NCBI GenBank assembly: GCA_949358305.1
Contig: CASHSZ010000010.1
Location: forward strand, 62,001 to 126,000
DNA: 64,000 nt
From: Strigamia acuminata
Taxonomy: Eukaryota; Arthropoda; Chilopoda; Geophilomorpha; Linotaeniidae
Direction: 5' to 3'
This document shows, piece after piece, positions 6,001 to 41,455 of the stretch (within the stretch, counting starts at the first letter, position 1; every line of letters starts with the position of its first letter). The position numbers and the translations under genes were made by a program. The notes beneath the pieces were generated by a model. The model ran no database searches. It was not told where the DNA came from and saw nothing but the letters and a program-made list of their open reading frames with translations.

Positions 6001-6312
6001 ATGAGATCAAAAGTCTATTCTCCCAAATCATTGGTTGGATGTTTCTAAAACTTACATTGGAGCCTTCTACTAAGGTTTAAACACTATTTCTGAACATTCA
6101 GAGACATTGGTGTTTGTGCTAAGTCAACTGCGATCTGAAATGAGCTCAAAATTTTTTTTTCAAAATTTATTGCTTGGGTGTTGCTAAAACTTACATTTAA
6201 GGCTTCTACAAAGGTTTAAACACTATTTATAAACATTCAGACACATTGGACTTGTGGTGTTTGTGCTAAGTCAACTGTGATGAGATCAAAAGTCTATTCT
6301 CCCAAATCATTG
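1..6312 (+). repeat. 140-bp satellite array, segment 1 (forward)
   Basis: Tandem copies of a 140-bp monomer that begins AATCATTGGTTGGATG and ends CTATTCTCCCA. The phase is exact from 1 to 3500 (25 monomers). Variants recur: CAATGG/TGAATG, CAATGG/TGAACG, CAGAAAC, GGTGTAAAC, and TTTCTG for TTTGTG. A clearly divergent monomer type (CTGCGATCTGAAATGAGCTC, then a T-run and GCTTGGGTGTTGC) starts near 3603, 4730 and 6128. The array holds no coding potential. It stops at 6312 where element A inserted and resumes in the same monomer at 12902. Confidence 0.98.
141..3500 (+). repeat. 8-monomer higher-order repeat, 1120 bp, three units
   Basis: Units 141-1260, 1261-2380 and 2381-3500 carry the same ordered series of monomer variants. 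Monomer 1 has TGAATG with TTTCTG, monomer 3 has CAGAAAC, monomer 4 has GGTGTAAAC, and monomer 7 has TGAACG with GGACTTG. The units differ by only a few bases (for example TGAAACTTAC in monomer 4 of units 2 and 3 only). This is a recently homogenised higher-order repeat. Confidence 0.93.
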
Positions 6313-7670
6313 TGTTTCTGGCAAGGTCGCAGGCGACAACCAGGCCAGAAGGAGGGGCGGCAATACTTGACTGCTGCTTGGCTAAAATTGATACACAGAA
6401 GTTGGCCAAAGACTTGAAGAAATGCAAACACTGGACTTGAACTTGCTGCTTCACATGATGATCTGCCACTGGTGAGTTCAAGGAGGAGGAAGGAGGATTT
6501 TTCTACTCACTGCACATTGCTTTCTGGTTGTATAGAGAAATGAGACTTGGAGAGAAATAAAAAGCAACCATTTTATTCTCTAAATTCTTAACAAGACTAC
6601 TACAATTGAATCACGAGGATATTACAAAGAAGTCACACTTTAACAATAATAAGAAACAACAAGTGTAACTATCTCCACATTGTATAAGGACACTTGCACT
6701 TAAAGTTACAGAGGTCTCTAAGTGCTTGTAAAGAGAAATAAGTACTGCTGGCACAACAAAACTACCGTAGAAGTTAATAGTTGAAAACACATAAGCCTAA
6801 CAGCAAGTATTTGACATTAAATGCAAAAGTATACATTAACAACAGTCTCTAACCACAATGCTCGTTGAGAACTAAATTATTCACTCTAAAACACACTGAA
6901 CAACTCATAAAATAGAGAAAAGAATAAGTAAAGACATTTTAGACCAATGAGCTGGCAACTTTACAGTAAGTGCAGAAGTTAAGTTATAAATCAACACAGA
7001 TAAATCTTAAACTTAACACTTTTACATTGCATAATAATTAAGTGATTAATTATTAATCAGAACCCACAAAAACTCTTTGGGATTAAACATTTTCTCCTCT
7101 CTTTACAGATACAAGTAGACCACTCCCACAGTAATGGCCGACAATGTAAACAGAGATCACTTGCAGGAAGATAGAAAGGCTTGAAATTAGCTCACTAGAC
7201 AGGCTACACACAATCTAAGTTAACAAAACGCTTAATTGGTTAGTAATATACAGAAAACAAACAGAAATTGATTGAAACAGCTTAAAACTGATAATAACAT
7301 ACATTTCTCATTCTAGTACCCTTTTGCTGTCTGAGAGCATCATTACACCTTGTCACTACATTGACAATAGTGGACTGGAAACAGGAAAACACTTGGAAAC
7401 ATCAAAACATGCATAACACAGGTAAACAAGATAGAAAATAAATTCTAAGTGGATAAATAACTAATGTAAAAACTCTTTTCTTCCCAGATTTATCCGGTCA
7501 GATCAACCAGTACTGAGAAATTCACTCAAACTAACTCAAAGAAGACTTATATTCAAATAAGTGTCTAATTAAATTCCCAATCTAAGATAAATATTAAAAA
7601 CCCTTTTTAATAATTCCAGATGACTAATTTTTAAGACGTTTAGCAGCTTTCCTTTATGTTGCTAGCAACA
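6313..7670 (-). repeat. Element A 3' LTR
   Basis: This is the same 1358-bp sequence as 11544-12901. In element orientation it begins with the perfect 14-bp palindrome TGTTGCTAGCAACA (7657-7670) and ends CCAGAAACA. On the minus strand an AATAAA lies at 6572-6577, followed by the GTGAGTAG box at 6503-6510. Confidence 0.95.
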
Positions 7671-7705
7671 TAGATTGCCGGCGAAAAGAAAGTGCGAACA
7701 ACCCA
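7671..7705 (-). other. Element A 3' junction: pyrimidine tract and GCCGGCAA box
   Basis: The 35 bases between the stop codon and the 3' LTR read, in coding sense, CTTTCTTTTCGCCGGCAA and then five bases to the LTR. A polypurine tract is expected here to prime plus-strand synthesis. The block is pyrimidine-rich instead, and it is shared with the other four elements. Confidence 0.6.
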
Positions 7706-10700
7706 TCATTTAGTTCGATTACTTCTGGTCTTTGATGATAATATTTGGGAGACCTCTTTCACCTTTTCGTATTCCACTCTGGGTGGCATGATTCTTTGAC
7801 GGATCAAATTTGGTATCCACGGAGGTATTCTTCGGTTGACAATCATACAACTAAGTCGAATAATTCCGTTGATGATTTTCCTTTTCGTCTCTAGGGACTT
7901 CATGGGCTTTGAGAAACATACTCGACAGGTTGGTTTGTATTTGTCGATCCCTCCTATCATCTTGACTCGGGTTTCGTGCGAAATTCGTCTTGAAAATTCA
8001 GCTTTATCTCCGCAAAAATAACATTTTGCTTGTAGTTTCACAACAGACTCGGCTAGTGGAACTAACTCGGATATCTGATCAAATGGCTTCCTCTTGAAGT
8101 CGACGTCTAATGCGGCGACTATTACCTTTTTCTTTTGCTCAGCCATTTCATTTGAAAAAGTAAAAATGTCGGGAAAAAACTGTCCTTCGTCAATTCCGAT
8201 TGTCTTCACTAATTTCGTTTTTTCCACAGCATTGGTTAGGCTACTGGTCGCGATTGCTTCTCGTCGATGACCGTCGTGGGTCACGACTTCGGTTTTACTG
8301 TAACGATCGTCATTGGAGTGTTTAATTAGCAGGGACGACGTCTTCTCTTCCTTTTCTAAAAGCTTCAATAACTTGGTCGTTTTCCCCGCATACATTGGAC
8401 CAATGATGAGATGAATTCCCTTTTGATTGGTTGACAAATCAATTTTCTTTTTCCAGAAATTCAGAATCACGTTTCCACTCCATCTCACGATTGCACACAA
8501 TTTGGGTAAACTGGGCACTTGGTTTGTAAGTAATTCGACGTTCTTTCTCCCTGACTCTAACTGATTTCGCCCTCGTAATTCCGGCTTCATGTCCGAGCTT
8601 GGAGTTCTGTTGACCAATCCTCCATCCTTGAACGACTTTTTCGTTTTTTGGAGGGTGGTGTCCAGTTCCTCTTTCTCCAGACCACTGGAGAGGCTCGCGG
8701 CAAAACAAGAAGGTGTGACGTCTGTCTGTTTATTCACACCGGGTTCGCCATTCATGTTGGGCAGTGATTTCGGAATTAATTGGACTATTTTGTTTTCGTC
8801 ATTTTCAGGTTGATTTGAGATCACTTCTTCTTTGGACTCGACCGCCATGCAAGAAATGTTGCACGCTGCCATGTTTTCTTCAAGCGGGTTGTTTGGTTTC
8901 AGTCGACCGTTTAGAATCCACCCAAAAATTGTCTCCATTAATCCCAACTCGTCGTTGATTTTTCGGCTTCCACCTTGACAAATCTTCCACCATGCGTTGC
9001 TTCCTAATAAGACGTCAATGTCTTCCGATTCTGACGGATGTATCTCAGCCATCTCAAGTCCGAGTGATTGGACTTGCTTTATGGCTTCTGCTCCAATTAT
9101 CCCTTTGACTTTCGGGAGTGTGTCGGTTTCTAATGCAAGGATTGATGTCTTTTTTGTTCCGTGTCTTGATTGTAGTTCGAATCTAAAGACATCATGTGTC
9201 GTCGGAACTGGCTTTTTGTTGAGCAGACACTGTGTCATCGTGTGTAGTGTCTCGATCTTTTGCATCCGGAATTTATTTACTAGTCTCTTCGTGACGTAGG
9301 AGCGATGGCTTCCTGGATCTAGTAATCCGCGGACGGGGTACATGTCTCCATTTTTCTTCACAAAAAGAGCAGTGAAGACCATCAGTTGAATCTCCACCGA
9401 CTCGGTAAGCGATACATTAGTAGACACGTTTTCTTCTTTTGGTGTAATCGCTTTTTCTTTGTTGTTTTTGTTGCAGATCGATGTGTGATGTCTTCCACCA
9501 CACAAGCGACAACAAAACTTCACGGTACATTCTTTGGCTGTGTGGTTATATCTCAAGCAGTTGAAACAAAGTCGTTTCTTCTTCACTATTTCGATCCTCG
9601 CTGGTACATCGAGATCCGCATCACAATTTGCGTGTGCGTGATCACCATCACAATAAGCGCAGGCGGGTTTGCGGTTTGGATTTGACTTGGAATTCATACT
9701 CAATTTTCCATTCTCGGAAGTCACGAATGAGGACATGGTTCCAGTTGGTCTTTCTCTTGTTTCCTTTGAAGTTTTCTCAAATTTTTCTGACTTCTTCAGA
9801 TGAGCGCGCTTAAGGAGAACGCTTTCTTCCGACAATTCAGCCAGTTGTATCTCGGTTGCTACGAAGTCCAGAAAAACGTTAACATCATCAACTTTTCCTT
9901 GATGCTTTCGGTAAAAACGTTGGGAGATCTCCGGTGGAAATTTTCTAAGTAGTTCTGGAATAAGGTACGTTCCAGTAGTGTCAACTGACACAGACAGTTG
10001 CGCCATGGTCCGGACAGCAGATGCCAATGACGTGAATAGAGCTTTGAGTGGCTCGATTGGGTAGAGATCGAAAACGGGTTTCGACTCCCTAATCATCTTT
10101 GAAATAGCATTTCTCTGCGTGTTTTCAGAACCGAATAGACTCTCCAATGTGTTTTTCGCTAATGGGTAGGCGTCATCAGTTATTGGGTACGACTTGATTG
10201 CGGATTCTGCAGCCCCAGTGCAGCATGACCTCAGATATATAAGCTTTTCCACGTTCGAAAGCTCCGTGTTCTGATCAACTGCTGATTCGAATAAATTCGC
10301 AAAACCTCTATATTCAGTTGCATCGCCACTAAATTTGGCAATGTCGGTTTTCGGCAATCTCGTGTTTCTCCTAGATGAAGCGGACGTCTGGTTTAAACTG
10401 GAATTCTGTCCCGGATGGGAACCAAATTGCCCTGCCATTTTTCCAGACACTTTTGCTCTTTGCTTCAATAAATTTACTCTGGTTCTAATGTCTTCAATTC
10501 GTTGAAGCCCCGCTAAATAGTCCTCTCTTTTTGACTCGTCTTTAAGAGCTTTCAATTCGTCGGCGAGATCACTCAATTGCTGGTCAACCGTTATTTGCAT
10601 GGCTTCCAGCTCTCCTCCGTCTAGAATGTTGACTGAAGATCCCAGCAGATCCTCGGCTCCTTGAGCCTTTGCTTTCCAAATGACCTCCTTTTCCTCGAGA

Positions 10701-10723
10701 TCAGCAGCGGATAATGTAGCCAT
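7706..10723 (-). CDS. Gag-protease-thymidine kinase fusion polyprotein of element A
   Basis: A single open frame of 1005 residues if translation begins at the ATG at 10723 (protein start MATLSAADLEEK); the three codons upstream start with GTG. Residue numbers here count from that upstream GTG, so subtract 3 for the ATG. Residues 1-340 are BEL-type Gag, with RLPKTDIAKFSGDATEYRGF near 125. Three zinc-knuckle-like motifs follow: C358/C361/H365/C370, C389/C392/H397/C402 and C408/C411/H415/C420. Residues 445-615 match the DUF1758/retropepsin-like region of C, D and E, including LLDPGSHRSY with D472. A 120-150-residue linker that I do not recognise leads into a TK1-type kinase at about 772-945 and a 63-residue tail of unknown origin. 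No reverse transcriptase, RNase H or integrase motif is present. Gag could package the RNA and carry the kinase into particles; that role is inferred. If the protease works, the kinase might be released. Confidence 0.93.
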   Translation of the reverse strand: MATLSAADLEEKEVIWKAKAQGAEDLLGSSVNILDGGELEAMQITVDQQLSDLADELKALKDESKREDYLAGLQRIEDIRTRVNLLKQRAKVSGKMAGQFGSHPGQNSSLNQTSASSRRNTRLPKTDIAKFSGDATEYRGFANLFESAVDQNTELSNVEKLIYLRSCCTGAAESAIKSYPITDDAYPLAKNTLESLFGSENTQRNAISKMIRESKPVFDLYPIEPLKALFTSLASAVRTMAQLSVSVDTTGTYLIPELLRKFPPEISQRFYRKHQGKVDDVNVFLDFVATEIQLAELSEESVLLKRAHLKKSEKFEKTSKETRERPTGTMSSFVTSENGKLSMNSKSNPNRKPACAYCDGDHAHANCDADLDVPARIEIVKKKRLCFNCLRYNHTAKECTVKFCCRLCGGRHHTSICNKNNKEKAITPKEENVSTNVSLTESVEIQLMVFTALFVKKNGDMYPVRGLLDPGSHRSYVTKRLVNKFRMQKIETLHTMTQCLLNKKPVPTTHDVFRFELQSRHGTKKTSILALETDTLPKVKGIIGAEAIKQVQSLGLEMAEIHPSESEDIDVLLGSNAWWKICQGGSRKINDELGLMETIFGWILNGRLKPNNPLEENMAACNISCMAVESKEEVISNQPENDENKIVQLIPKSLPNMNGEPGVNKQTDVTPSCFAASLSSGLEKEELDTTLQKTKKSFKDGGLVNRTPSSDMKPELRGRNQLESGRKNVELLTNQVPSLPKLCAIVRWSGNVILNFWKKKIDLSTNQKGIHLIIGPMYAGKTTKLLKLLEKEEKTSSLLIKHSNDDRYSKTEVVTHDGHRREAIATSSLTNAVEKTKLVKTIGIDEGQFFPDIFTFSNEMAEQKKKVIVAALDVDFKRKPFDQISELVPLAESVVKLQAKCYFCGDKAEFSRRISHETRVKMIGGIDKYKPTCRVCFSKPMKSLETKRKIINGIIRLSCMIVNRRIPPWIPNLIRQRIMPPRVEYEKVKEVSQILSSKTRSNRTK
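7898..8419 (-). other. TK1-type thymidine kinase domain inside the element A polyprotein
   Basis: About 174 residues contain every hallmark of the type II (TK1-like) thymidine kinase family in the right order. The P-loop is GPMYAGKTTKLL (residues 778-789, with K784 and T785). Next comes THDGHRREA near 818. The Walker-B/catalytic segment is IGIDEGQFFPDI (845-856), with E849 as the likely general base. AALDVDFKRKPF (873-884) and LVPLAESVVKL (890-900) follow. The two zinc-binding Cys pairs are C904/C907 and C936/C939, and IGGIDKYKPTC lies before the second pair. Known family chemistry is ATP-dependent phosphorylation of thymidine to dTMP. No intron, stop or frameshift interrupts it. The fold looks complete against the cellular enzyme core; human TK1 is longer only by flexible ends. 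The source could be a host gene or a viral one, and the sequence alone does not decide. Confidence 0.95.
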
Positions 10724-11543
10724 AATCCTCACCGAGAAATGAAGAATTCAAGGATCAGTTCAGGACTCAAACTCAACTTAACTGACTAAATTGGTTAACA
10801 AGAAATTGTCTAATTCTTTTACACTCTAGGATTTACTGAACACACAAAAGCAGGATGGATATCCACAAGCTGTTAACAGGATTGAAACACACGGGATGTT
10901 AACAGGATTGGCAAATTAACCCCCAAAATTCAATAATTAAAGGTAATTGACAATTCTCTTATTTTCACAATTGAGTTTCTGACTAGATACTCGTTTTAAA
11001 TTGGGATACCAACACTAAAGCTTGGTATTATTCACTAATTCACTGGATATTCTCTAAATTCCACAAACTGGAATCGAGAATTTATTCAAACTGTTAAGAC
11101 TTAAACTTCTTCTCCCCCCAACTACACCAGTTTCTAATCAAAAACTCCTTTGAAATGATTACAGCAGCAAATTCGGATATTATTCTATTTAAATAATAAT
11201 TCTTAATAATTATTTCTTCAAATCTTCTTGTAGGATGTACATTGCGTTGTGTTTGGAATTGATTGTCGTGCAGGATCGCTCGTACTCTCGAAGCCTTGCT
11301 TGATCCAAGTTGAAAAACATCTTGACCATCTTGACAATTTGAGAATCCAACTTGAAAAACCCACTTTTTTGCCTGTGAAAGGCGGACGAGAGCATACACT
11401 TCACTGTAGTGGCACAACTTCAATGGCACTTTACACATAAAAGCTTTGCACAGCTTGAGAACAAAACCCACTGATGAATTTTGCAGCACACATGAAGGTC
11501 CACTGAGATAACTGGAAGAAATCCTTGGTTCACGGTACCAAAT
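10724..11543 (-). other. Element A 5' leader
   Basis: An AT-rich leader of 820 bases between the 5' LTR and the gag ATG. I see no convincing protein in it; the short open frames here are not conserved in the other elements. The primer site lies at its LTR end. A weak splice-acceptor-like stretch (CTTCATTTCTCGGTGAG) sits directly before the ATG. Confidence 0.7.
11518..11540 (-). other. Element A primer-binding site (tRNA-His-like)
   Basis: In element sense the LTR end is followed, after three bases, by TGGTACCGTGAACCAAGGAT. TGG is the complement of a tRNA CCA end. The remainder resembles the complement of the tRNA-His 3' end (TGGTGCCGTGACCAGGAT, from memory) with small differences, so the tRNA identity is inferred. 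Confidence 0.6.
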
Positions 11544-12901
11544 TGTTTCTGGCAAGGTCGCAGGCGACAACCAGGCCAGAAGGAGGGGCGGCAATACTTG
11601 ACTGCTGCTTGGCTAAAATTGATACACAGAAGTTGGCCAAAGACTTGAAGAAATGCAAACACTGGACTTGAACTTGCTGCTTCACATGATGATCTGCCAC
11701 TGGTGAGTTCAAGGAGGAGGAAGGAGGATTTTTCTACTCACTGCACATTGCTTTCTGGTTGTATAGAGAAATGAGACTTGGAGAGAAATAAAAAGCAACC
11801 ATTTTATTCTCTAAATTCTTAACAAGACTACTACAATTGAATCACGAGGATATTACAAAGAAGTCACACTTTAACAATAATAAGAAACAACAAGTGTAAC
11901 TATCTCCACATTGTATAAGGACACTTGCACTTAAAGTTACAGAGGTCTCTAAGTGCTTGTAAAGAGAAATAAGTACTGCTGGCACAACAAAACTACCGTA
12001 GAAGTTAATAGTTGAAAACACATAAGCCTAACAGCAAGTATTTGACATTAAATGCAAAAGTATACATTAACAACAGTCTCTAACCACAATGCTCGTTGAG
12101 AACTAAATTATTCACTCTAAAACACACTGAACAACTCATAAAATAGAGAAAAGAATAAGTAAAGACATTTTAGACCAATGAGCTGGCAACTTTACAGTAA
12201 GTGCAGAAGTTAAGTTATAAATCAACACAGATAAATCTTAAACTTAACACTTTTACATTGCATAATAATTAAGTGATTAATTATTAATCAGAACCCACAA
12301 AAACTCTTTGGGATTAAACATTTTCTCCTCTCTTTACAGATACAAGTAGACCACTCCCACAGTAATGGCCGACAATGTAAACAGAGATCACTTGCAGGAA
12401 GATAGAAAGGCTTGAAATTAGCTCACTAGACAGGCTACACACAATCTAAGTTAACAAAACGCTTAATTGGTTAGTAATATACAGAAAACAAACAGAAATT
12501 GATTGAAACAGCTTAAAACTGATAATAACATACATTTCTCATTCTAGTACCCTTTTGCTGTCTGAGAGCATCATTACACCTTGTCACTACATTGACAATA
12601 GTGGACTGGAAACAGGAAAACACTTGGAAACATCAAAACATGCATAACACAGGTAAACAAGATAGAAAATAAATTCTAAGTGGATAAATAACTAATGTAA
12701 AAACTCTTTTCTTCCCAGATTTATCCGGTCAGATCAACCAGTACTGAGAAATTCACTCAAACTAACTCAAAGAAGACTTATATTCAAATAAGTGTCTAAT
12801 TAAATTCCCAATCTAAGATAAATATTAAAAACCCTTTTTAATAATTCCAGATGACTAATTTTTAAGACGTTTAGCAGCTTTCCTTTATGTTGCTAGCAAC
12901 A
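11544..12901 (-). repeat. Element A 5' LTR
   Basis: This is a 1358-bp copy of 6313-7670. On the minus strand it holds AATAAA at 11803-11808 and the GTGAGTAG box at 11734-11741. The outer end is TGCTAGCAACA at 12891-12901, followed by the ATTG duplication. The promoter must lie in the U3 part (the higher-coordinate side); I could not place a TATA box with confidence. Confidence 0.95.
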
Positions 12902-15900
12902 ATTGGTTGGATGTTTCTAAAACTTACATTGGAGCCTTCTACTAAGGTTTAAACACTATTTCTGAACATTCAGAGACATTGGTCTTGTGGTGTTTGTGCT
13001 AAGTCAACTGTGATGAGATCAAAAGTCTATTCTCCTAAATCAATGGTTGAATGTTTCTAAAACTTACATTGGAGCCTTCTACTAAGGTTTAAACACTATT
13101 TCTGAACATTCAGAGACATTGGTCTTGTGGTGTTTGTGCTAAGTCAACTGTGATGAGATCAAAAGTCTATTCTCCCAAATCATTGGTTGGATGTTTCTAA
13201 AACTTACATTGGAGCCTTCTACTAAGGTTTAAACACTATTTCTGAACATTCAGAGACATTGGTCTTGTGGTGTTTGTGCTAAGTCAACTGTGATTAGATC
13301 AAAAGTCTATTCTCCCAAATCATTGGTTGGATGTCTCTAAAACTTACATTGGAGCCTTCTACTAAGGTTTAAACACTATTTCTGAACATTCAGAGACATT
13401 GGTCTTGTGGTGTTTGTGCTAAGTCAACTGTGATGAGATCAAAAGTCTATTCTCCCAAATCATTGGTTGGATGTTTCTAAAATTTACATTGGAGCCTTCT
13501 ACTAAGGTTTAAACACTATTTCTGAACATTCAGAGACATTGGTCTTGTGGTGTTTGTGCTAAGTCAACTGTGATGAGATCAAAAGTCTATTCTCCTAAAT
13601 CAATGGTTGAATGTTTCTAAAACTTACATTGGAGCCTTCTACTAAGGTTTAAACACTATTTCTGAACATTCAGAGACATTGGACTTGTGGTGTTTGTGCT
13701 AAGTCAACTGTGATGAGATCAAAAGTCTATTCTCCCAAATCATTGGTTGGATGTTTCTAAAACTTACATTGGAGCCTTCTACTAAGGTTTAAACACTATT
13801 TCTGAACATTCAGAGACATTGGACTTGTGGTGTTTGTGCTAAGTCAACTGTGATGAGATCAAAAGTCTATTCTCCCAAATCATTGGTTGGATGTTTCTAA
13901 AACTTACATTGGAGCCTTCTACTAAGGTTTAAACACTAATTCTGAACATTCAGAGACATTGGTCTTGTGGTGTTTGTGCTAAGTCAACTGTGATTAGATC
14001 AAAAGTCTATTCTCCCAAATCATTGGTTGGATGTTTCTAAAACTTACATTGGAGCCTTCTACTAAGGTTTAAACACTATTTCTGAACATTCAGAGACATT
14101 GGTCTTGTGGTGTTTGTTCTAAGTCAACTGTGATGAGATCAAAAGTCTATTCTCCCAAATCATTGGTTGGATGTTTCTAAAACTTACATTGGAGCTTTCT
14201 ACTAAGGTTTAAACACTAATTCTGAACATTCAGAGACATTGGTCTTGTAGTGTTTGTGCTAAGTCAACTGTGATGAGATCAAAAGTCTATTCTCCCAAAT
14301 CATTGGTTGGATGTTTCTAAAACTTACATTGGAGCCTTCTACTAAGGTTTAAACACTAATTCTGAACATTCAGAGACATTGGTCTTGTGGTGTTTGTGCT
14401 AAGTCAACTGTGATTAGATCAAAAGTCTATTCTCCTAAATCATTGGTTGAATGTTTCTAAAACTTACATTGGAGCCTTCTACTAAGGTTTAAACACTATT
14501 TCTGAACATTCAGAGACATTGGTCTTGTGGTGTTTGTTCTAAGTCAACTGTGATGAGATCAAAAGTCTATTCTCCCAAATCATTGGTTGGATGTTTCTAA
14601 AACTTACATTGGAGCTTTCTACTAAGGTTTAAACACTAATTCTGAACATTCAGAGACATTGGTCTTGTGGTGTTTGTGCTAAGTCAACTGTGATGAGATC
14701 AAAAGTCTATTCTCTTAAATCATTGGTTGAATGTTTCTAAAACTTACATTGGAGCCTTCTACTAAGGTTTAAACACTATTTCTGAACATTCAGAGACATT
14801 GGACTTGTGGTGTTTGTGCTAAGTCAACTGTGATGAGATCAAAAGTCTATTCTCCCAAATCATTGGTTGGATGTTTCTAAAACTTACATTGGAGCCTTCT
14901 ACTAAGGTTTAAACACTAATTCTGAACATTCAGAGACATTGGTCTTGTGGTGTTTGTGCTAAGTCAACTGTGATTAGATCAAAAGTCTATTCTCCCAAAT
15001 CATTGGTTGGATGTTTCTAAAACTTACATTGGAGCCTTCTACTAAGGTTTAAACACTATTTCTGAACATTCAGAGACATTGGTCTTGTGGTGTTTGTTCT
15101 AAGTCAACTGTGATGAGATCAAAAGTCTATTCTCCCAAATCATTGGTTGGATGTTTCTAAAACTTACATTGGAGCTTTCTACTAAGGTTTAAACACTAAT
15201 TCTGAACATTCAGAGACATTGGTCTTGTGGTGTTTGTGCTAAGTCAACTGTGATGAGATCAAAAGTCTATTCTCCCAAATCATTGGTTGGATGTTTCTAA
15301 AACTTACATTGGAGCCTTCTACTAAGGTTTAAACACTAATTCTGAACATTCAGAGACATTGGTCTTGTGGTGTTTGTGCTAAGTCAACTGTGATTAGATC
15401 AAAAGTCTATTCTCCTAAATCATTGGTTGAATGTTTCTAAAACTTACATTGGAGCCTTCTACTAAGGTTTAAACACTATTTCTGAACATTCAGAGACATT
15501 GGTCTTGTGGTGTTTGTTCTAAGTCAACTGTGATGAGATCAAAAGTCTATTCTCCCAAATCATTGGTTGGATGTTTCTAAAACTTACATTGGAGCTTTCT
15601 ACTAAGGTTTAAACACTAATTCTGAACATTCAGAGACATTGGTCTTGTGGTGTTTGTGCTAAGTCAACTGTGATGAGATCAAAAGTCTATTCTCTTAAAT
15701 CATTGGTTGAATGTTTCTAAAACTTACATTGGAGCCTTCTACTAAGGTTTAAACACTATTTTTGAACATTCAGAGACATTGGTCTTGTGGTGTTTGTGCT
15801 AAGTCAACTGCAATGTGAAATGAACTCAAAATTTTTTTTTCAAAATTTATTGCTTGGGTGTTGCTAAAACTTATATTGAAGGCTTCTACTAAGGTTTAAA

Positions 15901-29447: not shown

Positions 29448-31009
29448 TGTTGCAGGTCAACAAGACAGATAGAAAGGAATGGCGATGCGTATCCAAATTC
29501 AAGACACTTGAGCTCGCCCAAGGTCGTATGGCGTGGCTAGTACGAAAATCGCACTGGAGAGCAATAAATCCGCAACAAATGGCATTGTTGTACCGCTGGA
29601 ACAATGTGGAGAACACCTGCACCAAGTATCCAATAGGTGGCGGAAACATAAGTTGGCCTGAGAATTTTTAAACTACTCACTACACATTGAATGTGTTTGA
29701 AAATAAACCTAAAACAAGAGCTAATAAAACACAACACATTTATTCAAAGGTTGGTTAATAACTGAAGAAATTACAGCAATTAGATTGGTTCTTAGAGAAC
29801 CGCACATGCGCAGTACCGAATATGGCACGCGCCAGGCCGATAGCGGCGAAATACAGATACACGAAAGATTCCGTTACCATGGTAACGGAGGAAACAAGAT
29901 CACGGCAAAGTTGGCATTTGCTTAAAAATGCACTAAAAATACATTGAAATACATTGAAATGACCACAAGAATGCGGTGAACAAAAAAGCTAATCACAACA
30001 ATGTCAAAAAACACGTTAAACAATGAGATATTAGCAATAAACCGATCTCGGAAAGAAAGGATTGACGATAGCCAATCACAGGCCAGGAAAATTACATAAC
30101 GATCACATTTGAATTTCGATCGGTACAAAAGCACAAAATTATCAAAGAATACATACTGAATAATAACGCAATGTAATAGTAAATGCAAATTATGTGATAT
30201 AAAATACAAAAATAACGGTTACATTGTGTAATCGTCGCTTGGGACAAACATGGCGACCGGCGAACATAACAAAGGTGTTGGATCAAACATGGCGTCCGGC
30301 GAACGTAACATCGGCGGCAAAATCACACGTAAAATGAATGTAAAAACACTAAATGTAAATAATCAATAAAGTATCGATTAAATAACAAGAATAATTATCA
30401 ATTCTCTTCACAAAACATCGGAATAAAATACACAGATTGAATAAATACGAATTTATCGGCCAAACGAACATTCCCGGCTGCTCTTTTATGGCAGATGGAA
30501 ACGAACGTTCAAACCAAACAAACGGAACTTCCAAAGCAGTTTTGATGCATCTAGATAGAAAGAGCATGCTTGAATTAGTCTAAACGAATGCTTAATAAAA
30601 TTCCAAGGGATTTGAAAAGTACTAAACAAAAGGTTAGAAGACGGAACCGTAACTTTACGGGAAACAGAAAAATGACGTCACTAGCATCGCAAATGTATAC
30701 CAGGGAACGAAATATGCACCAAAACAGTTCGGAATCAACACAAACTCTCTTAAAACAAGTGAATAAGTCAATAAATGCACGGAATAAGATATTTGAAATA
30801 AATACAAAGCATAAACACTACTAAATATTGAAAAGTATGAATAAAAATCAAGTCAAAACACTTATATAAGCAATAAAAATCTGAAAAGTGAAAAAATACC
30901 AATTAGGCAAAGGAAATAAAAACACTTAAAGATTTTAATCAACTCAAAGTAAATGGTAATAAATAATGACAATAAAATAGCACAACAATATCTACGCTGT
31001 CTTGCAACA
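29448..31009 (-). repeat. Element C 3' LTR
   Basis: A 1562-bp LTR; in element sense it begins TGTTGCAAGACAGCG and ends GTTGACCTGCAACA. A minus-strand AATAAA lies at 29739-29744 and the GTGAGTAG box at 29673-29680. Short open frames in it recur in both LTRs but show no known family. Confidence 0.95.
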
Positions 31010-31069
31010 GCGAATTGCCGGCGAGAGGACAGAGATGGAGAACCACGCAAAAAAATCACAAAAGAAAAA
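31010..31069 (-). other. Element C 3' junction: pyrimidine tract and GCCGGCAA box
   Basis: Between the stop codon and the 3' LTR the coding sense ends CTGTCCTCTCGCCGGCAA and then five bases to the LTR. There is no purine run, and the block matches those of the other elements. Confidence 0.6.
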
Positions 31070-34000
31070 TCACTCAAGTTCTAGGGCTCTCACATGCTTG
31101 ACTGACCTTTTCAACTCACGTCCATCGGGTAGCACAACTTTTATCACACGGATTTGACCATCCTCACCGGGAAAAATTTCTTTTATCCTAGCAAGGGGCC
31201 AAAAATAGGGATTTGTACCCATTTTCTCTAGCAACACGATTTGGTCTACTTTAGGGTTTTTGAAGAACTTATCACCTTTTGTTTCATAAAAATTCCTCAG
31301 TTGCATGAGGTAACTCTTTTTCCAAATTTTCCAGAACTCCCAAATAAATTGGCGTCGTTTAATGTCTAGTTTTCGCAAATCTGATTTTTTAATTGCACTC
31401 AATTGTTTGTTTATTACGTATTTTGGCATGCCTCCTGTTAGAAAGTTTTCAGGTGCCAAAATTCTACCACCATCAACACTGTCGGGGACATAACTTAAAG
31501 GTCGTGAATTTAGCACTGAACTAATTTCCAGAGCCAAAGTTTGGAGAGTTTCTAAGTCTACGGTGCTGCGCAACAATATCTTTCGAAGTTTATCTTTAAC
31601 TGAGCGGACTAGACGCTCCCACGCTCCGCCCATCCATGGAGACAGCGGTGGGATGAATGTCCAGAGCACCCTTTTCTCAGATAGGAATGTTTTCACGTCT
31701 TTTTGACCGATGAGTTTCCCCCATGATTGTAATTCGAGGCTTCCGCGCTCAAATGTCTTACTGTTGTCAGAGAAAATCTTCCCGGGGTATCCGTGGCGTG
31801 CCCCAAATCTTCTCATTGCAAGCAAAAACTTTGGCACAGAAAGGTCCTCTGATACTTCTAAATGTATGGAACGGGTCACCATACACGTGAAAAGCAAGAT
31901 GTAAACTTTTTTCTTTTCCTTCTTGTTGCTGCCGACATAAATGGGACCCAAGTGGTCCACTCCTGTGTTTTGGAATGGCGCCGCTGGTGTCACACGTTCA
32001 GCAGGAAGGTCACCCGTTGAAGGGTTGTTGCGTGCAAGTTTTCCTCGTCGGCAAATCTCACACTCTCGAATAACTGTTTGTATAGTTCGTCGTCCTCTTA
32101 TAATCCAAAATTGCTCTCGTAGGTGATACAAGGTTTCGCTTATGTCACCGTGAAGCAACTCCAAATGCACTTTTTTAATTAACAGTCTTGTTATCCAACT
32201 ATCATAATGCAAAATAATTGGATACACTTCATCAAATGTCAATAAAGATTTTTTCAAGCGGCTACGAAGTCGAAGTAATCCGTCCTCGTCAATGAAGAGC
32301 TCGAAATTGCGTAGGGTGGAATGTTTAGACAGTTCTCTTTTGTTTTTCACATCATCAATCTCCTCAGAAAAATGTAATTTCTGGGAAAATTGCAGGATCT
32401 TCAATTGGTTGTCCTCTAACTCGAGTGGCGAGAGAGGCTCACCGCGCAAAAGTTTGTTTTTCCATCGCAAAATATACGAAAAAACTCTCAAAAGTTTGTT
32501 GTAATTCCGGAAACGTTTGAAGAATTGTCCAATAAAACTTTCCTTAACTTGAATAGTCATCACTACGATTTTTCGTTCCTCTTCTGGAAGAATCTCTTGT
32601 ATAATTTCTGTTTTTTCTAGTTTCGAGACATCAACTCCAAACCACCAAAGTTTATTGTTCATCAATGTTTTTGAGTTATGTGGTCGAGTTAATAAATCTG
32701 CTGGGTTAAATTCCGTTGGTACATGAGACCATTGTTTGGGTTTGGTTGAAGAAGTAATTTCTTGCACACGGTTCGAGACGTATGGCTTCCACACGTTTTT
32801 GTCACTATTTATCCATGCTAGAGTTATGGTGGAGTCCGAGTAGTATCGCACTTCAGTGACTGGGTACCCGGGAAGAAAGTTTTCTAACAGGTACTTGGTC
32901 ATCCTAACTCCAACCACTGCTGCAGTTAATTCAAGTCGAGGAAGAGTCACTTTTTTCGTCGGCGCAATACGACATTTGCTCAACAATAAAGTTCTTTTGC
33001 CCTCCAGATTGACGACAAAAATTGAACAGCCAAATGCCTTTGTGCTTGCGTCACAGAAAACTTCTAAAGTGATGTCTTGACCGGAATAAGTCTGCAGCCA
33101 ACGTTGTACTTTCAATTCTTTCAATTTTTGTATGTCTTGACTCCATTCTTCGACTTCTTTTTTCTCTGAGTCAAGAATCTTTTCATCCCAGTTTTTTGTT
33201 CTAATCCAGATTGCTTGAACTAGCAGTTTCATTTGAAGCACAACAGGAGCAATGAGTCCCATTGGATCGAATATGGAAGCCATTAATGAAACAACTTCTC
33301 GCTTTGTATTCGGAATTTTTTCAATTGTCGGAATGTTAAACATCATGACATCTTCTGCCGTGTTCCACAATATTCCAAGCATTTTTATAATTCCTAAGTC
33401 CGAAAACTCCTCTCCTCGCATATGAAAACCTTCTTTTTTCAAATTGTTGAAGACGTCCTTGCTTGAGGTCGCCCACTTCACGAGGGGAAGCTTTCCGTCG
33501 TCTAATATCATTTTCAGTTTCTCGCAATGTGATGTTGTGTCGGCTGTAAAATCTCCTCCTGACGTCAAATCATCCATGAAGATTCCATCATCGAGTGCGT
33601 CGACTTCTTTTGCATGAGTTTCTTTGAATTGTTTCGCTTGTTTCCTAATCGTCGCACACAAGAGGAATGGAGAAGAAATGACGCCAAATGGCACGACAAT
33701 CATTCGCAGAACCATTAGATTATTCCACAAATTTTGCCATGAGTATGGCTCTTTGAAATAGTCACGAGCGACCCACAAAAAACGTAAAAAGTTTGTTTGA
33801 GTTGGGTTGATCATAACTTGGAGAAACGCTTGCTTAATGTCTGCTATTATTGGAATACAATAGAGACGGAATCTCACAATAACGAGTATCAAGTCTGGAT
33901 TAAGGGAAGGTCCCGGAAATAAACAGTCATTGAGGGAAAGTTTCCCCTTCTTGGATGAAGACGCGTTGAACACTACTCGAAATTTCGTCGTGTCTCGATC

Positions 34001-36310
34001 CTCCTTGATTACAGGGTGGTGAGGTATATTGTAGGTTCCTTTCTTCAGAAAACGCTCCTCTTTTGGGACTTCCTCCGCGTGATTTTCGTGAATATACTGC
34101 CACATGGACTCGTCGTAACGTTTTTTGTAATCCTCGTTGGCATCTATTCTTTTGAGTGTGTTGGCCAGTTGGTTCATGGCCAACTCCCAATTGGATTCCA
34201 AGTCGACTTCCTGTCCATTGAATGGCAGCATGACTTCATAACGTCCATCGTCTAGACGCTTCGTAGTTGATTCGAATCGATCGCGAATAAAGTCGGATTC
34301 TTTTTCTCCTGCATTTATTCCGATCGCTTCCAAGTTCCACAGTTTGTCCAATTTTTCTTGGATGTTTAAGTCGCATGTGTTGCAACATGTTGTCAATTCT
34401 TCCTCATCTTCGAATAAATTGGTGTTCCCCGCCGCTCCGGACAAAACCCAACCAAAAATTGTATTTATTAATCCAAGATCTGCGTTTACTTTTTTCTTGC
34501 CGTCCTTAACGACCTTCCACCACACGTCAACTCCTAAAAGCACATCGATTTGAGAAGTCTTAGCTGGTAGGTCTTCAGCAAGTTCAAGGTTTAACTTCTT
34601 CACCTTGTCTATTATTGATGAGTTAAGAATGCCCTGCACTCGTGGCAAATTTTCCACAGAAAGCATTGAAAGTTTCAAATCTTGAGTGTCATTTTTACTC
34701 TGCAGTGTGACATTAAACACATCATAGTCCGTGGCTGCTGGAGACGAGTCGTTGAATCTCTGTGTGGTGGCAGAGACACTGCCGCATTTTTTCAGTTTCA
34801 GTCTTTCAACAAATTCTTTTGTGATGAACGATCGATGGCTTCCCGGATCAATCATCCCTCGAATGCTGTGAGTTCCTCCTGATTTTGTTTTGAGGTCCGC
34901 GGTGAATATCATTAGTTGTAGAGTCGTCGAGATTGCGCATGAAACATGTGTTGTTACTTGTGGCTCCTTCGGCTTCTCCGCAGCGCTCGTTGAATTCTTC
35001 ACCTCGGATTTTTTGCATATTGTGGAATGGTGTCGCCCACCACAATGTTTACAAGAAAATTTGACCTTGCAGTCTCCCACTCTATGCCCAGTTCTGAAAC
35101 AATTAAAACACAGTCGGTTTTTCTTAACTATTTCGATTTTCGCGTTAATTTCGAAATCCTTTTTACAAGCGCCGTTTAAATGTTCATCTTCACAAAAAAT
35201 GCACTTGTTTGTCTTGAAAGGCGTATTCTTGCTTTCAGATTTCGGTTCACTCTTTGTTTTGGCACTAGTAGACTGCTTGGCGTCTTGAGTAGCTGCGCAC
35301 GTGGTCATTGAACCTTTCACTTTCGGTTTCTCCACTTCAGATTTTTCATTCTTGTCTTTTTTCGATTTTTCAGAAACGCTTTCAGTTCGTTCGGCCATCG
35401 CAACTTCATTCACAAAGAAATTGAGCAACGTAACAATGTTCTTATTTTGAATTCCGTGAACCTGGTAAAATCTTAATGCCATTGAAGTTGGAAACTTGCT
35501 AATTATGTCTGGCAATAAGAAGGCTCCGGAAGTCTGAATAGGAATTTTAAGTTGCTCTAAAAGTCTAATAGTCGCAGAAATCTTTGTCAAATTTGTTTTT
35601 ATCGCTTTAGTTGGATATACACTTGAAACAGCTTTTAATTCTCGAATTGATTTTATTAACGCAGTTTGTTGTGCATCCTCATCACCAAAATGTCTTTCGA
35701 GTTCTTCTCTTGCAAGGTCATATGATTCCTCGATCAAGGGAAAAGTTGAGATGAGAATTGCCGCTTCTCCAGTACACATAGTTTGTAAATACTGGAGTTT
35801 TTCAATGTTACTCAGGTCTGGATCCTTGTGTACGGAGGTCTCGAAGTTGCTTTTAAATGTTCTGTACTTCAAAATATCTCCGTCGAATTTTACGGAATCC
35901 AATTTGGGCAGCTTCGAATTTTTTCTAAACGTTGCTGTCGCGTTCAAGGTTGTGTTCTGATTTGAGCTTGTCGACGTATTTAATCTTCCTCCCAAAGTTG
36001 GAAGTGATCGCTTTGAGATTTCGTATCTCGTGCGAAGAAGATCCACTCTTGCTTGCATAGTCTCAAGCTTGTCAATGCATTCTAGATAATAGCCGTGGTC
36101 CGAATATTCCTGTAGATCATTCAGCGCACCGACTATTCTCGTTTCTTTTGGGTTCGCAGTTTGCACCAGCGCTTCCAGTTCTCCTGGATCTGCTGTCTTC
36201 TCCGATATAGACAACAGATGATTCATTGCAGTGACTTGCGACTCCCAACGTTGTTGTAGCACTTCGATTTGATCCTCAGTTAGAAGATCTCTCATTGTAG
36301 GTTCCGCCAT
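31070..36310 (-). CDS. BEL/Pao Gag-Pol polyprotein of element C
   Basis: One frame of 1746 residues from an ATG at 36310. Gag (DUF1759-like) fills 1-365, with zinc knuckles C370/C373/H377/C382, C401/C404/H409/C414 and C420/C423/H427/C432. The protease-like DUF1758 region has D488 in RGMIDPGSHRSF. Reverse transcriptase shows D824 in IADIKQAFLQ and FMDD at 911-914. RNase H has D1087 (FCDAS), E1127, D1159 and D1205. Integrase has the zinc motif H1382/H1387/C1417/C1420 and a catalytic triad D1452, D1515, E1565 (GGAWE). A DUF5641-type tail runs to the end. All catalytic residues I looked for are present and no stop or frameshift occurs. By family knowledge the product builds a particle, copies its RNA to DNA and integrates it. 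The protease triplet is DPG rather than the usual DTG or DSG. Confidence 0.96.
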   Translation of the reverse strand: MAEPTMRDLLTEDQIEVLQQRWESQVTAMNHLLSISEKTADPGELEALVQTANPKETRIVGALNDLQEYSDHGYYLECIDKLETMQARVDLLRTRYEISKRSLPTLGGRLNTSTSSNQNTTLNATATFRKNSKLPKLDSVKFDGDILKYRTFKSNFETSVHKDPDLSNIEKLQYLQTMCTGEAAILISTFPLIEESYDLAREELERHFGDEDAQQTALIKSIRELKAVSSVYPTKAIKTNLTKISATIRLLEQLKIPIQTSGAFLLPDIISKFPTSMALRFYQVHGIQNKNIVTLLNFFVNEVAMAERTESVSEKSKKDKNEKSEVEKPKVKGSMTTCAATQDAKQSTSAKTKSEPKSESKNTPFKTNKCIFCEDEHLNGACKKDFEINAKIEIVKKNRLCFNCFRTGHRVGDCKVKFSCKHCGGRHHSTICKKSEVKNSTSAAEKPKEPQVTTHVSCAISTTLQLMIFTADLKTKSGGTHSIRGMIDPGSHRSFITKEFVERLKLKKCGSVSATTQRFNDSSPAATDYDVFNVTLQSKNDTQDLKLSMLSVENLPRVQGILNSSIIDKVKKLNLELAEDLPAKTSQIDVLLGVDVWWKVVKDGKKKVNADLGLINTIFGWVLSGAAGNTNLFEDEEELTTCCNTCDLNIQEKLDKLWNLEAIGINAGEKESDFIRDRFESTTKRLDDGRYEVMLPFNGQEVDLESNWELAMNQLANTLKRIDANEDYKKRYDESMWQYIHENHAEEVPKEERFLKKGTYNIPHHPVIKEDRDTTKFRVVFNASSSKKGKLSLNDCLFPGPSLNPDLILVIVRFRLYCIPIIADIKQAFLQVMINPTQTNFLRFLWVARDYFKEPYSWQNLWNNLMVLRMIVVPFGVISSPFLLCATIRKQAKQFKETHAKEVDALDDGIFMDDLTSGGDFTADTTSHCEKLKMILDDGKLPLVKWATSSKDVFNNLKKEGFHMRGEEFSDLGIIKMLGILWNTAEDVMMFNIPTIEKIPNTKREVVSLMASIFDPMGLIAPVVLQMKLLVQAIWIRTKNWDEKILDSEKKEVEEWSQDIQKLKELKVQRWLQTYSGQDITLEVFCDASTKAFGCSIFVVNLEGKRTLLLSKCRIAPTKKVTLPRLELTAAVVGVRMTKYLLENFLPGYPVTEVRYYSDSTITLAWINSDKNVWKPYVSNRVQEITSSTKPKQWSHVPTEFNPADLLTRPHNSKTLMNNKLWWFGVDVSKLEKTEIIQEILPEEERKIVVMTIQVKESFIGQFFKRFRNYNKLLRVFSYILRWKNKLLRGEPLSPLELEDNQLKILQFSQKLHFSEEIDDVKNKRELSKHSTLRNFELFIDEDGLLRLRSRLKKSLLTFDEVYPIILHYDSWITRLLIKKVHLELLHGDISETLYHLREQFWIIRGRRTIQTVIRECEICRRGKLARNNPSTGDLPAERVTPAAPFQNTGVDHLGPIYVGSNKKEKKKVYILLFTCMVTRSIHLEVSEDLSVPKFLLAMRRFGARHGYPGKIFSDNSKTFERGSLELQSWGKLIGQKDVKTFLSEKRVLWTFIPPLSPWMGGAWERLVRSVKDKLRKILLRSTVDLETLQTLALEISSVLNSRPLSYVPDSVDGGRILAPENFLTGGMPKYVINKQLSAIKKSDLRKLDIKRRQFIWEFWKIWKKSYLMQLRNFYETKGDKFFKNPKVDQIVLLEKMGTNPYFWPLARIKEIFPGEDGQIRVIKVVLPDGRELKRSVKHVRALELE

Positions 36311-36387
36311 TTTCTCTGTCCTCTCTCACAAAAAATTCGGCTGTGAAATTTGGAAAGAACAGATAAAAACGGGCATGACAATTCAAC

Positions 36388-36523
36388 TTTGTTTTAATTT
36401 TTAAGAGAATAAACCTTTTTATTTTATCCCCCAAAAATATCTCAACATTCACGGTTTTTGTTTTAACTTTAAAGAGAATAAACTTTTTAATTTTATCCCC
36501 CAAAAAGCACTCAATTTTCACGG
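36388..36523 (-). repeat. Tandem duplication in the element C leader, 69-bp period
   Basis: Two imperfect copies (about 36388-36455 and 36457-36523), each with GTTTTAA, AAGAGAATAAAC, TTTTATCCCCCAAAAA and CACGG in order. Leader repeats like these can be regulatory or packaging signals; no function is shown here. Confidence 0.85.
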
Positions 36524-36639
36524 TCCTTGGTGACACGTGAGAATTTTAGAATATCAAATGTTTGGCCAATCGAGGATGACCAAAAATTTGAGCGGTTTTG
36601 TGTACGTAAATAAAACGTGACACAATTACCCTGCACAGT

Positions 36640-36740
36640 TTGAAAATAATTGACGGTTTGTTTTGCAACAAAGCACGCCAATAAACTCTTTCGAAAACAA
36701 TTGACGGTTCGTTTTGCAACAAAACACGCCAATAACTCCT
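36640..36740 (-). repeat. Tandem duplication in the element C leader, 51-bp period
   Basis: Two copies (36640-36690 and 36691-36740) share AATTGACGGTT, GTTTTGCAACAAA and CACGCCAATAA. They differ at a handful of positions. Confidence 0.85.
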
Positions 36741-37269
36741 AACATTAAATTTAGATTCTACTGACAGCTCAATCAACTTGAAACTAGTCAGTTCTACTCG
36801 AAATAAATCTAATCTCCCCCGCTTATGGCGGTTATAGTGGAGAACTAAGCATGCAATGAAAAAACACTTCAAAAGTTGTAAAATAGACACTTTATCGAAA
36901 TTTTCCCGAAAACCAACAAATGCAACTACCAAAATCCCATAAAGACACTTGATACTGTTCCCCTTAATAACCAAAATCTCCAAAATTTCAATTTCAAAAG
37001 GCAAAACACTGTAAAATGCAATTATTCCAGGGGCGAATCCGCTTTCCAACACGACGCGTTGTGTTATCCAGTGTTGTGACCTTGAACTCCAACTGCATGC
37101 ACACTTTTGTTCGTTTTCGCCGCCAAAGCAGTCTCCGTCGTAACTTCTATCACGTTGAACGTTGACTCTTGACATGGGTGACGAAACACGAACGTATTGT
37201 TCCTCCGTCGCACCAAACACTTTTTCAAACGTATTGATGATGCACTGGAAAAACTCACGAATTGCAGAC

Positions 37270-37291
37270 GGAATCCTGGTCACGGCTACCA
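37270..37291 (-). other. Element C primer-binding site (tRNA-His-like)
   Basis: In element sense, beginning 16 bases after the LTR end, TGGTAGCCGTGACCAGGAT appears. Apart from one extra A after TGGT and a G/A-type difference it matches the complement of a tRNA-His 3' end. This is the longest such match of the five elements. Confidence 0.65.
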
Positions 37292-37306
37292 AATGCTTCG
37301 TATCTG

Positions 37307-38868
37307 TGTTGCAGGTCAACAAGACAGATAGAAAGGAATGGCGATGCGTATCCAAATTCAAGACACTTGAGCTCGCCCAAGGTCGTATGGCGTGGCTAGT
37401 ACGAAAATCGCACTGGAGAGCAATAAATCCGCAACAAATGGCATTGTTGTACCGCTGGAACAATGTGGAGAACACCTGCACCAAGTATCCAATAGGTGGC
37501 GGAAACATAAGTTGGCCTGAGAATTTTTAAACTACTCACTACACATTGAATGTGTTTGAAAATAAACCTAAAACAAGAGCTAATAAAACACAACACATTT
37601 ATTCAAAGGTTGGTTAATAACTGAAGAAATTACAGCAATTAGATTGGTTCTTAGAGAACCGCACATGCGCAGTACCGAATATGGCACGCGCCAGGCCGAT
37701 AGCGGCGAAATACAGATACACGAAAGATTCCGTTACCATGGTAACGGAGGAAACAAGATCACGGCAAAGTTGGCATTTGCTTAAAAATGCACTAAAAATA
37801 CATTGAAATACATTGAAATGACCACAAGAATGCGGTGAACAAAAAAGCTAATCACAACAATGTCAAAAAACACGTTAAACAATGAGATATTAGCAATAAA
37901 CCGATCTCGGAAAGAAAGGATTGACGATAGCCAATCACAGGCCAGGAAAATTACATAACGATCACATTTGAATTTCGATCGGTACAAAAGCACAAAATTA
38001 TCAAAGAATACATACTGAATAATAACGCAATGTAATAGTAAATGCAAATTATGTGATATAAAATACAAAAATAACGGTTACATTGTGTAATCGTCGCTTG
38101 GGACAAACATGGCGACCGGCGAACATAACAAAGGTGTTGGATCAAACATGGCGTCCGGCGAACGTAACATCGGCGGCAAAATCACACGTAAAATGAATGT
38201 AAAAACACTAAATGTAAATAATCAATAAAGTATCGATTAAATAACAAGAATAATTATCAATTCTCTTCACAAAACATCGGAATAAAATACACAGATTGAA
38301 TAAATACGAATTTATCGGCCAAACGAACATTCCCGGCTGCTCTTTTATGGCAGATGGAAACGAACGTTCAAACCAAACAAACGGAACTTCCAAAGCAGTT
38401 TTGATGCATCTAGATAGAAAGAGCATGCTTGAATTAGTCTAAACGAATGCTTAATAAAATTCCAAGGGATTTGAAAAGTACTAAACAAAAGGTTAGAAGA
38501 CGGAACCGTAACTTTACGGGAAACAGAAAAATGACGTCACTAGCATCGCAAATGTATACCAGGGAACGAAATATGCACCAAAACAGTTCGGAATCAACAC
38601 AAACTCTCTTAAAACAAGTGAATAAGTCAATAAATGCACGGAATAAGATATTTGAAATAAATACAAAGCATAAACACTACTAAATATTGAAAAGTATGAA
38701 TAAAAATCAAGTCAAAACACTTATATAAGCAATAAAAATCTGAAAAGTGAAAAAATACCAATTAGGCAAAGGAAATAAAAACACTTAAAGATTTTAATCA
38801 ACTCAAAGTAAATGGTAATAAATAATGACAATAAAATAGCACAACAATATCTACGCTGTCTTGCAACA
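37307..38868 (-). repeat. Element C 5' LTR
   Basis: A 1562-bp copy of 29448-31009 with no difference that I noticed. Its outer end is followed by the GTGC duplication and satellite. Confidence 0.95.
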
Positions 38869-41403: not shown

Positions 41404-41455
41404 TCGCTGCCAGCCGAAAAAGAAGCAGACAGCCGGCTCAAACAAATCGACCACG
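41404..41455 (-). other. Element D 3' junction: pyrimidine tract and GCTGGCA box
   Basis: In coding sense the bases before the LTR read GCTTCTTTTTCGGCTGGCA and then GCGA. This is the D version of the pyrimidine-GCCGGCAA block, with one C-to-T change in the GCCGGC core. Confidence 0.55.

What the first reader, a model, noticed from the sequence alone, without database searches (positions are those of the whole stretch)
7898..8419. Thymidine kinase captured inside a retrotransposon Gag polyprotein
Seen: element A's single frame runs from BEL Gag and zinc knuckles through a protease-like region into a full TK1-type thymidine kinase with P-loop, IDEGQFFPDI, LVPLAESVVKL and two Cys pairs. Known: several retroviruses carry dUTPase in their polyprotein, and large DNA viruses carry thymidine kinase, both to improve nucleotide supply. 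I know of no BEL/Pao or other LTR element with thymidine kinase. Inference: the kinase may raise dTTP in non-dividing or germline cells, or inside particles, to help reverse transcription of this element and its helpers.
Basis: partly seen in the sequence, partly recalled or inferred. Interest (0 to 1): 0.93.

Follow-up and report, generated by a model that had tools for sequence, protein, structure and literature searches.

The report
Jumping gene carrying a thymidine kinase
A family of mobile elements in an animal genome lacks its own copying enzymes and carries instead an intact-looking enzyme for making a DNA building block, which natural selection has kept in many copies.

Summary
Confirmed. 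Window 6313-12901 (minus strand) is a complete LTR element: identical 1358-bp LTRs, 4-bp target duplication, one open frame of BEL/Pao Gag, zinc knuckles, protease-like region, linker, full TK1-type thymidine kinase (7913-8416) and tail. No reverse transcriptase or integrase was found. It is not a lone copy: of 150 TK matches listed (205 candidates), 92 are of this type, 84 of the 92 in frames of 995-1013 aa. Lineages A1 and A2 are colinear at about 51% identity, so the kinase was probably gained before they split; A3 is one copy lacking the start of Gag. TK codons are under purifying selection (A2-A3 omega 0.10, 0.055-0.169; A1 variants P=3e-5); the adjoining linker is much less constrained. 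LTR ends, 4-bp duplications and a pre-3'LTR core are shared with gag-pol BELs of the window, and the primer site with another: plausible helpers. In trees the kinase groups with other multicopy TKs of this genome. No such architecture appeared in one protein search or in ten literature listings. Best reading: a helper-dependent BEL family that traded pol for a kinase raising dTTP supply for reverse transcription. Selection is shown; helper use and the dTTP role are inferred.

The parts
6313..12901 (-). Element A (lineage A1), complete BEL-type LTR element without pol, inserted in a 140-bp satellite array
11544..12901 (-). 5' LTR, 1358 bp, TGTTGC...AAACA
   Evidence: 0 mismatches to the 3' LTR
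6313..7670 (-). 3' LTR, 1358 bp
6309..6312 (.). target-site duplication ATTG, left
   Evidence: interrupts a satellite unit
12902..12905 (.). target-site duplication ATTG, right
11523..11540 (-). putative primer-binding site TGGTACCGTGAACC...; tRNA not identified
   Evidence: nearly the same in A2 and in the interrupted BEL 39850-56500
7706..10723 (-). single ORF, 1005 aa from the first ATG: Gag, protease-like, linker, TK, tail
9908..10333 (-). Gag domain DUF1759 (PF03564)
9470..9670 (-). three CCHC-type zinc knuckles (bounds approximate)
   Evidence: read from the translation
8828..9355 (-). protease-like region with DPGSHRS motif
8438..8827 (-). fast-evolving linker, used as an internal comparison
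7913..8416 (-). TK1-type thymidine kinase domain
7709..7912 (-). C-terminal tail; its first ~36 aa recognisably conserved in A1, A2, A3
7671..7685 (-). TTCGCCGGCAATCTA before the 3' LTR; core CGGCAA shared with A2 and two gag-pol BELs of the window
29448..38869 (-). gag-pol BEL element (1746-aa frame), LTRs identical over 1563 bp: candidate helper type

Best explanation
Element A belongs to a helper-dependent BEL/Pao family that lacks RT, RNase H and integrase and carries a TK1-type thymidine kinase at the end of its Gag-protease polyprotein. Its RNA is packaged, copied and integrated by enzymes of gag-pol BEL elements with similar LTR ends, duplication length and primer site (inferred). The kinase, made in Gag-like amounts, phosphorylates thymidine and raises dTMP/dTTP in the cell or near particles where host TK1 is low, helping reverse transcription (inferred). 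The kinase came from the host lineage's own TK before the A1/A2 split (likely) and has been kept by selection since (shown).
For: Domains and order. Of 150 listed TK matches 92 are of this type, 84 of the 92 in frames of 995-1013 aa (counted by hand). 49 of 52 A1-type Gag matches pair with a listed TK. A1 and A2 are colinear at ~51% over ~1000 aa including TK. TK omega 0.103 (0.055-0.169) for A2-A3 against linker 0.473 (0.287-0.818); nine A1 copies: TK 17 synonymous and 13 nonsynonymous variants, P 3.2e-5, linker 12 and 27, P 0.11; three A2 copies: TK 5 and 4, P 0.03. Catalytic motifs kept. No pol: the latter with a positive control. Shared cis signals. LTR pairs identical in 4 of 4 elements compared, two with one LTR cut by the locus end. 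TK clade of this genome 100/88, SH-aLRT 98 without family C.
Against: No enzyme, RNA or particle data. TK makes only dTMP; dTTP needs two more host kinases (recalled). TK against linker is only P 0.049 in A1 and 0.56 in A2 by Fisher; two pairs within the 1009-aa group have TK omega 0.37 and 0.69 on few changes. Of nine A1 copies read, two carry a change just before the catalytic motif and one in the P-loop proline. No close gag-pol partner was found: Gag of other BELs read is 34-38% identical, the protease stretch up to 43%. A1 LTRs show no BLASTN similarity to those of A2 or two window BELs. Without D and E, C no longer groups firmly with A and long branches meet.
Confidence: 0.62

Rival explanations
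1. The kinase is a structural or packaging module: the TK fold oligomerises and helps particle assembly or localisation, with catalysis irrelevant.
For: Fusion to Gag-protease; TK1 enzymes form tetramers (recalled); conserved tail not seen in the other TKs aligned.
Against: P-loop lysine, DEGQFF and Zn cysteines are kept across lineages ~50% divergent, which a scaffold would not need.
Confidence: 0.15
2. Passive transduction: a host TK was picked up once and rides along without benefit; intactness only reflects youth.
For: Copies are young: LTR pairs identical in 4 of 4 compared; many A1 copies nearly identical in Gag.
Against: A2-A3 differ by dS ~1 in TK with omega 0.10, while the adjoining linker is at 0.47.
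Confidence: 0.06
3. The element is a host-serving TK gene family using retroelement parts, not a selfish element.
For: TK is also multiplied outside LTR elements in the same genome (families C, D, E).
Against: Identical LTRs, target duplication, primer site and dozens of copies, many in satellite.
Confidence: 0.08
4. The nucleotide effect is not for the element's own cDNA but acts on the cell, for example on salvage in the germ line, to the benefit of all retroelements.
For: No RT was found in the element, so any dTTP rise is shared with helpers (inference).
Against: No direct data either way.
Confidence: 0.09

Closest known systems
Retroviral and LTR-retrotransposon dUTPases (beta-retroviruses, non-primate lentiviruses, ERVs; bdelloid rotifer, fungal and planarian LTR elements)
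   Same: A nucleotide-metabolism enzyme inside an LTR-element polyprotein; [quoted passage not shown] abstract of PMC5408684; passages of PMC6431247)
   Different: dUTPase clears dUTP and sits in elements with pol; here a thymidine-salvage kinase follows Gag-protease and no pol was found
BEL/Pao LTR elements (Belpaoviridae)
   Same: Gag type, zinc knuckles, protease-like region, LTRs, primer-site-like sequence, short duplication
   Different: No RT/RH/IN, no polypurine tract seen, TK added; the ICTV profile (whole text, PMC8742986) names no such domain, and the word kinase does not occur in the main text of the BEL/Pao survey PMC3118150 (term search)
Non-autonomous gag-only LTR elements (recalled)
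   Same: Gag without pol, mobilised in trans
   Different: Carries a selected enzyme of cellular type
Cytosolic TK1 and viral type-II thymidine kinases
   Same: Complete domain and motifs; TK-like genes also occur in small DNA viruses (bidna-class parvovirus segments, passage of PMC11071296)
   Different: Fused to Gag-protease, with an extra conserved tail
Bdelloid rotifer LTR elements with GDSL esterase or DEDDy exonuclease ORF3
   Same: Captured enzyme in LTR elements
   Different: Those are separate ORF3s beside gag and pol, and their authors report no significant departure from neutrality (abstract and Discussion of PMC5408684)

Membership tests
BEL/Pao (Belpaoviridae) | BEL-type Gag | tested here: met
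   DUF1759 E 2e-17; 36% to BEL gag-pol of the window
BEL/Pao (Belpaoviridae) | LTRs with short target duplication | tested here: met
   1358 bp identical, ATTG; LTR slightly over the 0.2-1.2 kb of the ICTV profile
BEL/Pao (Belpaoviridae) | tRNA primer-binding site | tested here: inconclusive
   TGG-start site shared with A2 and one BEL; tRNA not identified
BEL/Pao (Belpaoviridae) | polypurine tract before 3' LTR | tested here: not met
   pyrimidine-rich stretch and CGGCAA core instead; the same in A2 and two gag-pol BELs of the window
BEL/Pao (Belpaoviridae) | aspartic protease | tested here: inconclusive
   homologous region with DPGS as in window BELs; no Pfam protease match for A1, Asp_protease_2 below its cut-off for A2
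BEL/Pao (Belpaoviridae) | RT, RNase H, integrase | tested here: not met
   no Pfam match; pol of a window BEL gives only E>3 matches in element A, control positive: a BEL-derived element, not an autonomous BEL
TK1-type thymidine kinase | P-loop, DEGQF, Zn cysteines | tested here: met
TK1-type thymidine kinase | thymidine phosphorylation | not testable with these tools
   needs an enzyme assay
TK1-type thymidine kinase | tetramer | not tested
Retroelements with nucleotide-metabolism enzymes | enzyme under selection in the element | tested here: met
Retroelements with nucleotide-metabolism enzymes | benefit to reverse transcription | not testable with these tools
   needs experiments

The most novel reading that the evidence does not exclude
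A new life style for a retroelement: a helper-dependent LTR family that gave up pol altogether and instead supplies the cell or particle with a thymidine-salvage kinase, so that it may feed, rather than only exploit, the elements whose polymerase it uses. It persisted long enough to split into lineages at ~50% protein identity.
Probability: 0.3. Interest if true: 0.92.

Novelty: new variant of a known kind. Interest (0 to 1): 0.82.

Why it matters
Retroviral dUTPases suggest that thymidine-nucleotide supply limits reverse transcription in resting cells. A retroelement lineage that kept a thymidine kinase under selection while lacking its own polymerase gives an independent, natural test of that idea, and a case where a helper-dependent element may provide a shared good. 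It also suggests that an LTR family can last long without pol.

Tried and rejected
Considered: pseudogene or chance frame (rejected: 84 of 92 listed copies in full frames; selection). Assembly accident (rejected: many separate sites). TK from a DNA virus (not favoured: the tree groups it with TKs of the same genome; one distant IMG/VR hit at 32%; but the tree held one named virus, a poxvirus, and 67 of the 120 hits listed). Free-standing TK families C, D, E: four of five C copies were read and share a BAF-TK stretch with varying breakpoints, so a bounded element is not seen; D and E remain unexplained: in 7 ORFs from these families no Pfam match but TK passed its cut-off, and no ends were found. 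Closest gag-pol partner by Gag search: the list (70 scored of 1313 candidates) was filled by A1 and A2 copies, so not found. Literature: ten searches (one search failed); no listed title or abstract opening described an LTR element with thymidine kinase. Only top rows were listed and most papers were not opened; passages or sections were read of PMC5408684, PMC3118150, PMC2427051, PMC6431247, PMC11071296, PMC12440569, PMC6338049, PMC4531489, and the whole of PMC8742986. Protein search for Gag-TK-size proteins: 4 hits among 1050 candidates, none with a Gag domain listed; it sees only relatives sharing 5-residue words. Repbase was not searched. Facts marked recalled come from no call.

Full report
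What is there. The finding lies in genome G000 (237.5 Mb in 157 contigs; window = C21:62001-126000). BAF genes, 54 cuticle-protein domains (PF00379) and a single marginal odorant-receptor match (PF02949) point, by what I recall of these families, to an arthropod, perhaps not an insect; the species is not known to me. Much of the window is a 140-bp satellite. Element A spans 6313-12901 on the minus strand. Its LTRs, 6313-7670 and 11544-12901, are 1358 bp with no mismatch. ATTG stands on both sides, and the flanks read as one satellite unit without the insert.

One frame, 7706-10723 minus, 1005 aa from the first ATG, holds BEL-type Gag (DUF1759), zinc knuckles, a protease-like region, a linker, a complete TK1 domain and a tail. 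TK matches Pfam at E 2.6e-54, NCBIfam PRK04296 at 1.5e-42, though below that model's cut-off (145.9 against 183 bits), and solved cytosolic thymidine kinases at 7e-43. Pol was not found: no Pfam match, and RT-to-integrase of a window gag-pol element gives only matches of E>3 in element A, while it finds a 62% match in another BEL of the window.

Copies. PF00265 gave 205 candidates in the genome, 150 scored and listed. I sorted the 150 rows by hand by open-frame size and by the loci read: A1 51, A2 40, A3 1, C 5, D 13, E 40. Of the 92 A-type rows, 84 lie in frames of 995, 1002, 1009 or 1013 aa (34 + 13 A1; 32 + 5 A2), and one has a stop inside TK. Assignment of copies that were not fetched rests on frame size and score. 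A3 is one 814-aa frame that matches A2 from residue 228 on and has no DUF1759 match. The A1 Gag search gave 70 scored rows of 1313 candidates: 52 A1-type (87-100% identity), 47 of them in full frames, and 18 A2 at 58%. 49 of the 52 pair with a TK row; three do not appear in that capped list. By hand count 68 of the 92 A-type rows lie on five contigs (C1, C5, C8, C9, C13). In 5 of 8 A-type loci examined, satellite adjoins the element; in one (L027) it lies further off; in two (L022, L025) none was found. The LTR search listed 40 of 122 candidates, identity 99-100%.

Selection. Nei-Gojobori counts on nine A1, three A2 and one A3 sequences. A2 against A3: TK dS 1.02, dN 0.105, omega 0.103 (bootstrap 0.055-0.169); Gag-protease 0.134 (0.090-0.182); linker 0.473 (0.287-0.818); tail 0.363 (0.071-0.817). 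Among nine A1 copies: TK 17 synonymous and 13 nonsynonymous variants (P 3.2e-5 against neutrality), linker 12 and 27 (P 0.11), tail 3 and 6 (P 0.32), Gag-protease 36 and 5. Three A2 copies: TK 5 and 4 (P 0.03). Weaker results: TK against linker P 0.049 (A1) and 0.56 (A2); two pairs within the 1009-aa group have TK omega 0.37 and 0.69 on few changes. A1-A2 dS is saturated. Six of the nine A1 copies were chosen to span TK scores, which should raise, not lower, nonsynonymous variation.

Active site. The A copies aligned keep the P-loop lysine, DEGQFF and the four cysteines, with copy-specific changes in three of nine A1 copies (L029 in the P-loop proline; L026 and L032 just before DEGQFF). About 36 aa after TK are recognisably conserved in A1, A2 and A3 and not in the other TKs aligned.

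Origin. A tree of 74 TK proteins (67 of the 120 hits listed, plus 7 of this genome) puts A1, A2, A3, C, D and E in one clade (100/88). They share a 2-residue gap in the first helix, larger in D and E. Without C the A+D+E group stays (SH-aLRT 98); without D and E, C no longer falls firmly with A, and long branches meet. A host-lineage origin is likely; which TK was the donor is open. A-type TKs are one clade (100/96), and A1 and A2 are colinear: one acquisition before their split is the simplest reading.

Replication. A1, A2 and two window BELs (29448-38869; 45643-53463) share TGTT..ACA ends, 4-bp duplications (read off after moving one base for the two BELs) and a core before the 3' LTR (CGCCGGCAA in A1 and the two BELs, CGGCGGCAA in A2). 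The primer-like site TTTGGTACCGTGA is shared by A1, A2 and the interrupted BEL at 39850-56500; the other two BELs differ more. The ends of that interrupted BEL were not resolved, and it does not show the core at the ends used. No polypurine tract is visible. A1 LTRs otherwise show no BLASTN match to those of A2 or the two BELs. LTR pairs were identical in 4 of 4 comparisons (window full length; L024 1212 bp and L026 1170 bp, cut; L027 965 bp). L033 is identical to the window copy in Gag-protease yet has 13 TK differences, as expected if packaged RNAs recombine, though gene conversion would do the same.

Mechanism. Shown: an intact, selected TK fused to Gag-protease in LTR elements without pol and with young copies. 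Inferred: mobilisation by BEL pol in trans; enzyme activity; benefit through dTTP. In non-proliferating cells nucleotide pools are low and dUTP high, and lentiviral dUTPase matters there (passages of PMC2427051). TK adds dTMP by salvage and could act to the same end. A scaffold role and passive carriage are the main rivals.

Known or not. Whole-length search with the TK region found four proteins among 1050 candidates, none with a Gag domain listed; the Gag region found four BEL-type proteins at 22-25% identity, with only the 7999 candidates sharing most words scored. Ten literature searches listed none (see Tried and rejected). The closest precedents are dUTPases in retroviruses and in LTR elements of rotifers, fungi and planarians and captured enzymes in rotifer elements, for which the authors report no significant departure from neutrality. 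A review of accessory domains in retrotransposon polyproteins has no occurrence of 'kinase' or 'thymid' in its main text (term search, PMC6338049). The libraries are open-access PMC and a protein set of limited sensitivity; Repbase was not searched.

Noticed in passing
L014:2003-2330 and 2501-3163; also L009, L037, L038: Five dispersed copies pair a two-exon BAF (barrier-to-autointegration factor) gene with an intronless TK; a sixth BAF on C1 has no listed TK near it.
   Followed up: partly
L017, L019, L035, L036 (family E); L010-L013, L015, L016, L018, L020 (family D): Free-standing TK ORFs multiplied outside LTR elements: 40 (E) and 13 (D) of 150 TK rows, in large dispersed repeats of unknown kind.
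   Followed up: partly
window 39850-56500: Nested BELs: an element with repeats of at least 1267 bp (outer end not resolved) is split by another at 45643-53463, whose LTRs are identical over 919 bp.
   Followed up: partly
window 7671-7685; before the 3' LTR of L027, and from 31011 and 46562 in the window: CGGCAA core before the 3' LTR and no polypurine tract in four BEL-type elements.
   Followed up: partly
L028:549-8501: A 2986-bp identical direct repeat holding two A2 units head to tail, as from LTR recombination.
   Followed up: no
L033: Gag-protease identical to the window copy but 13 differences in TK: mosaic copy.
   Followed up: no
window 7805-7912: Tail after TK recognisably conserved in A1, A2, A3, function unknown.
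   Followed up: no
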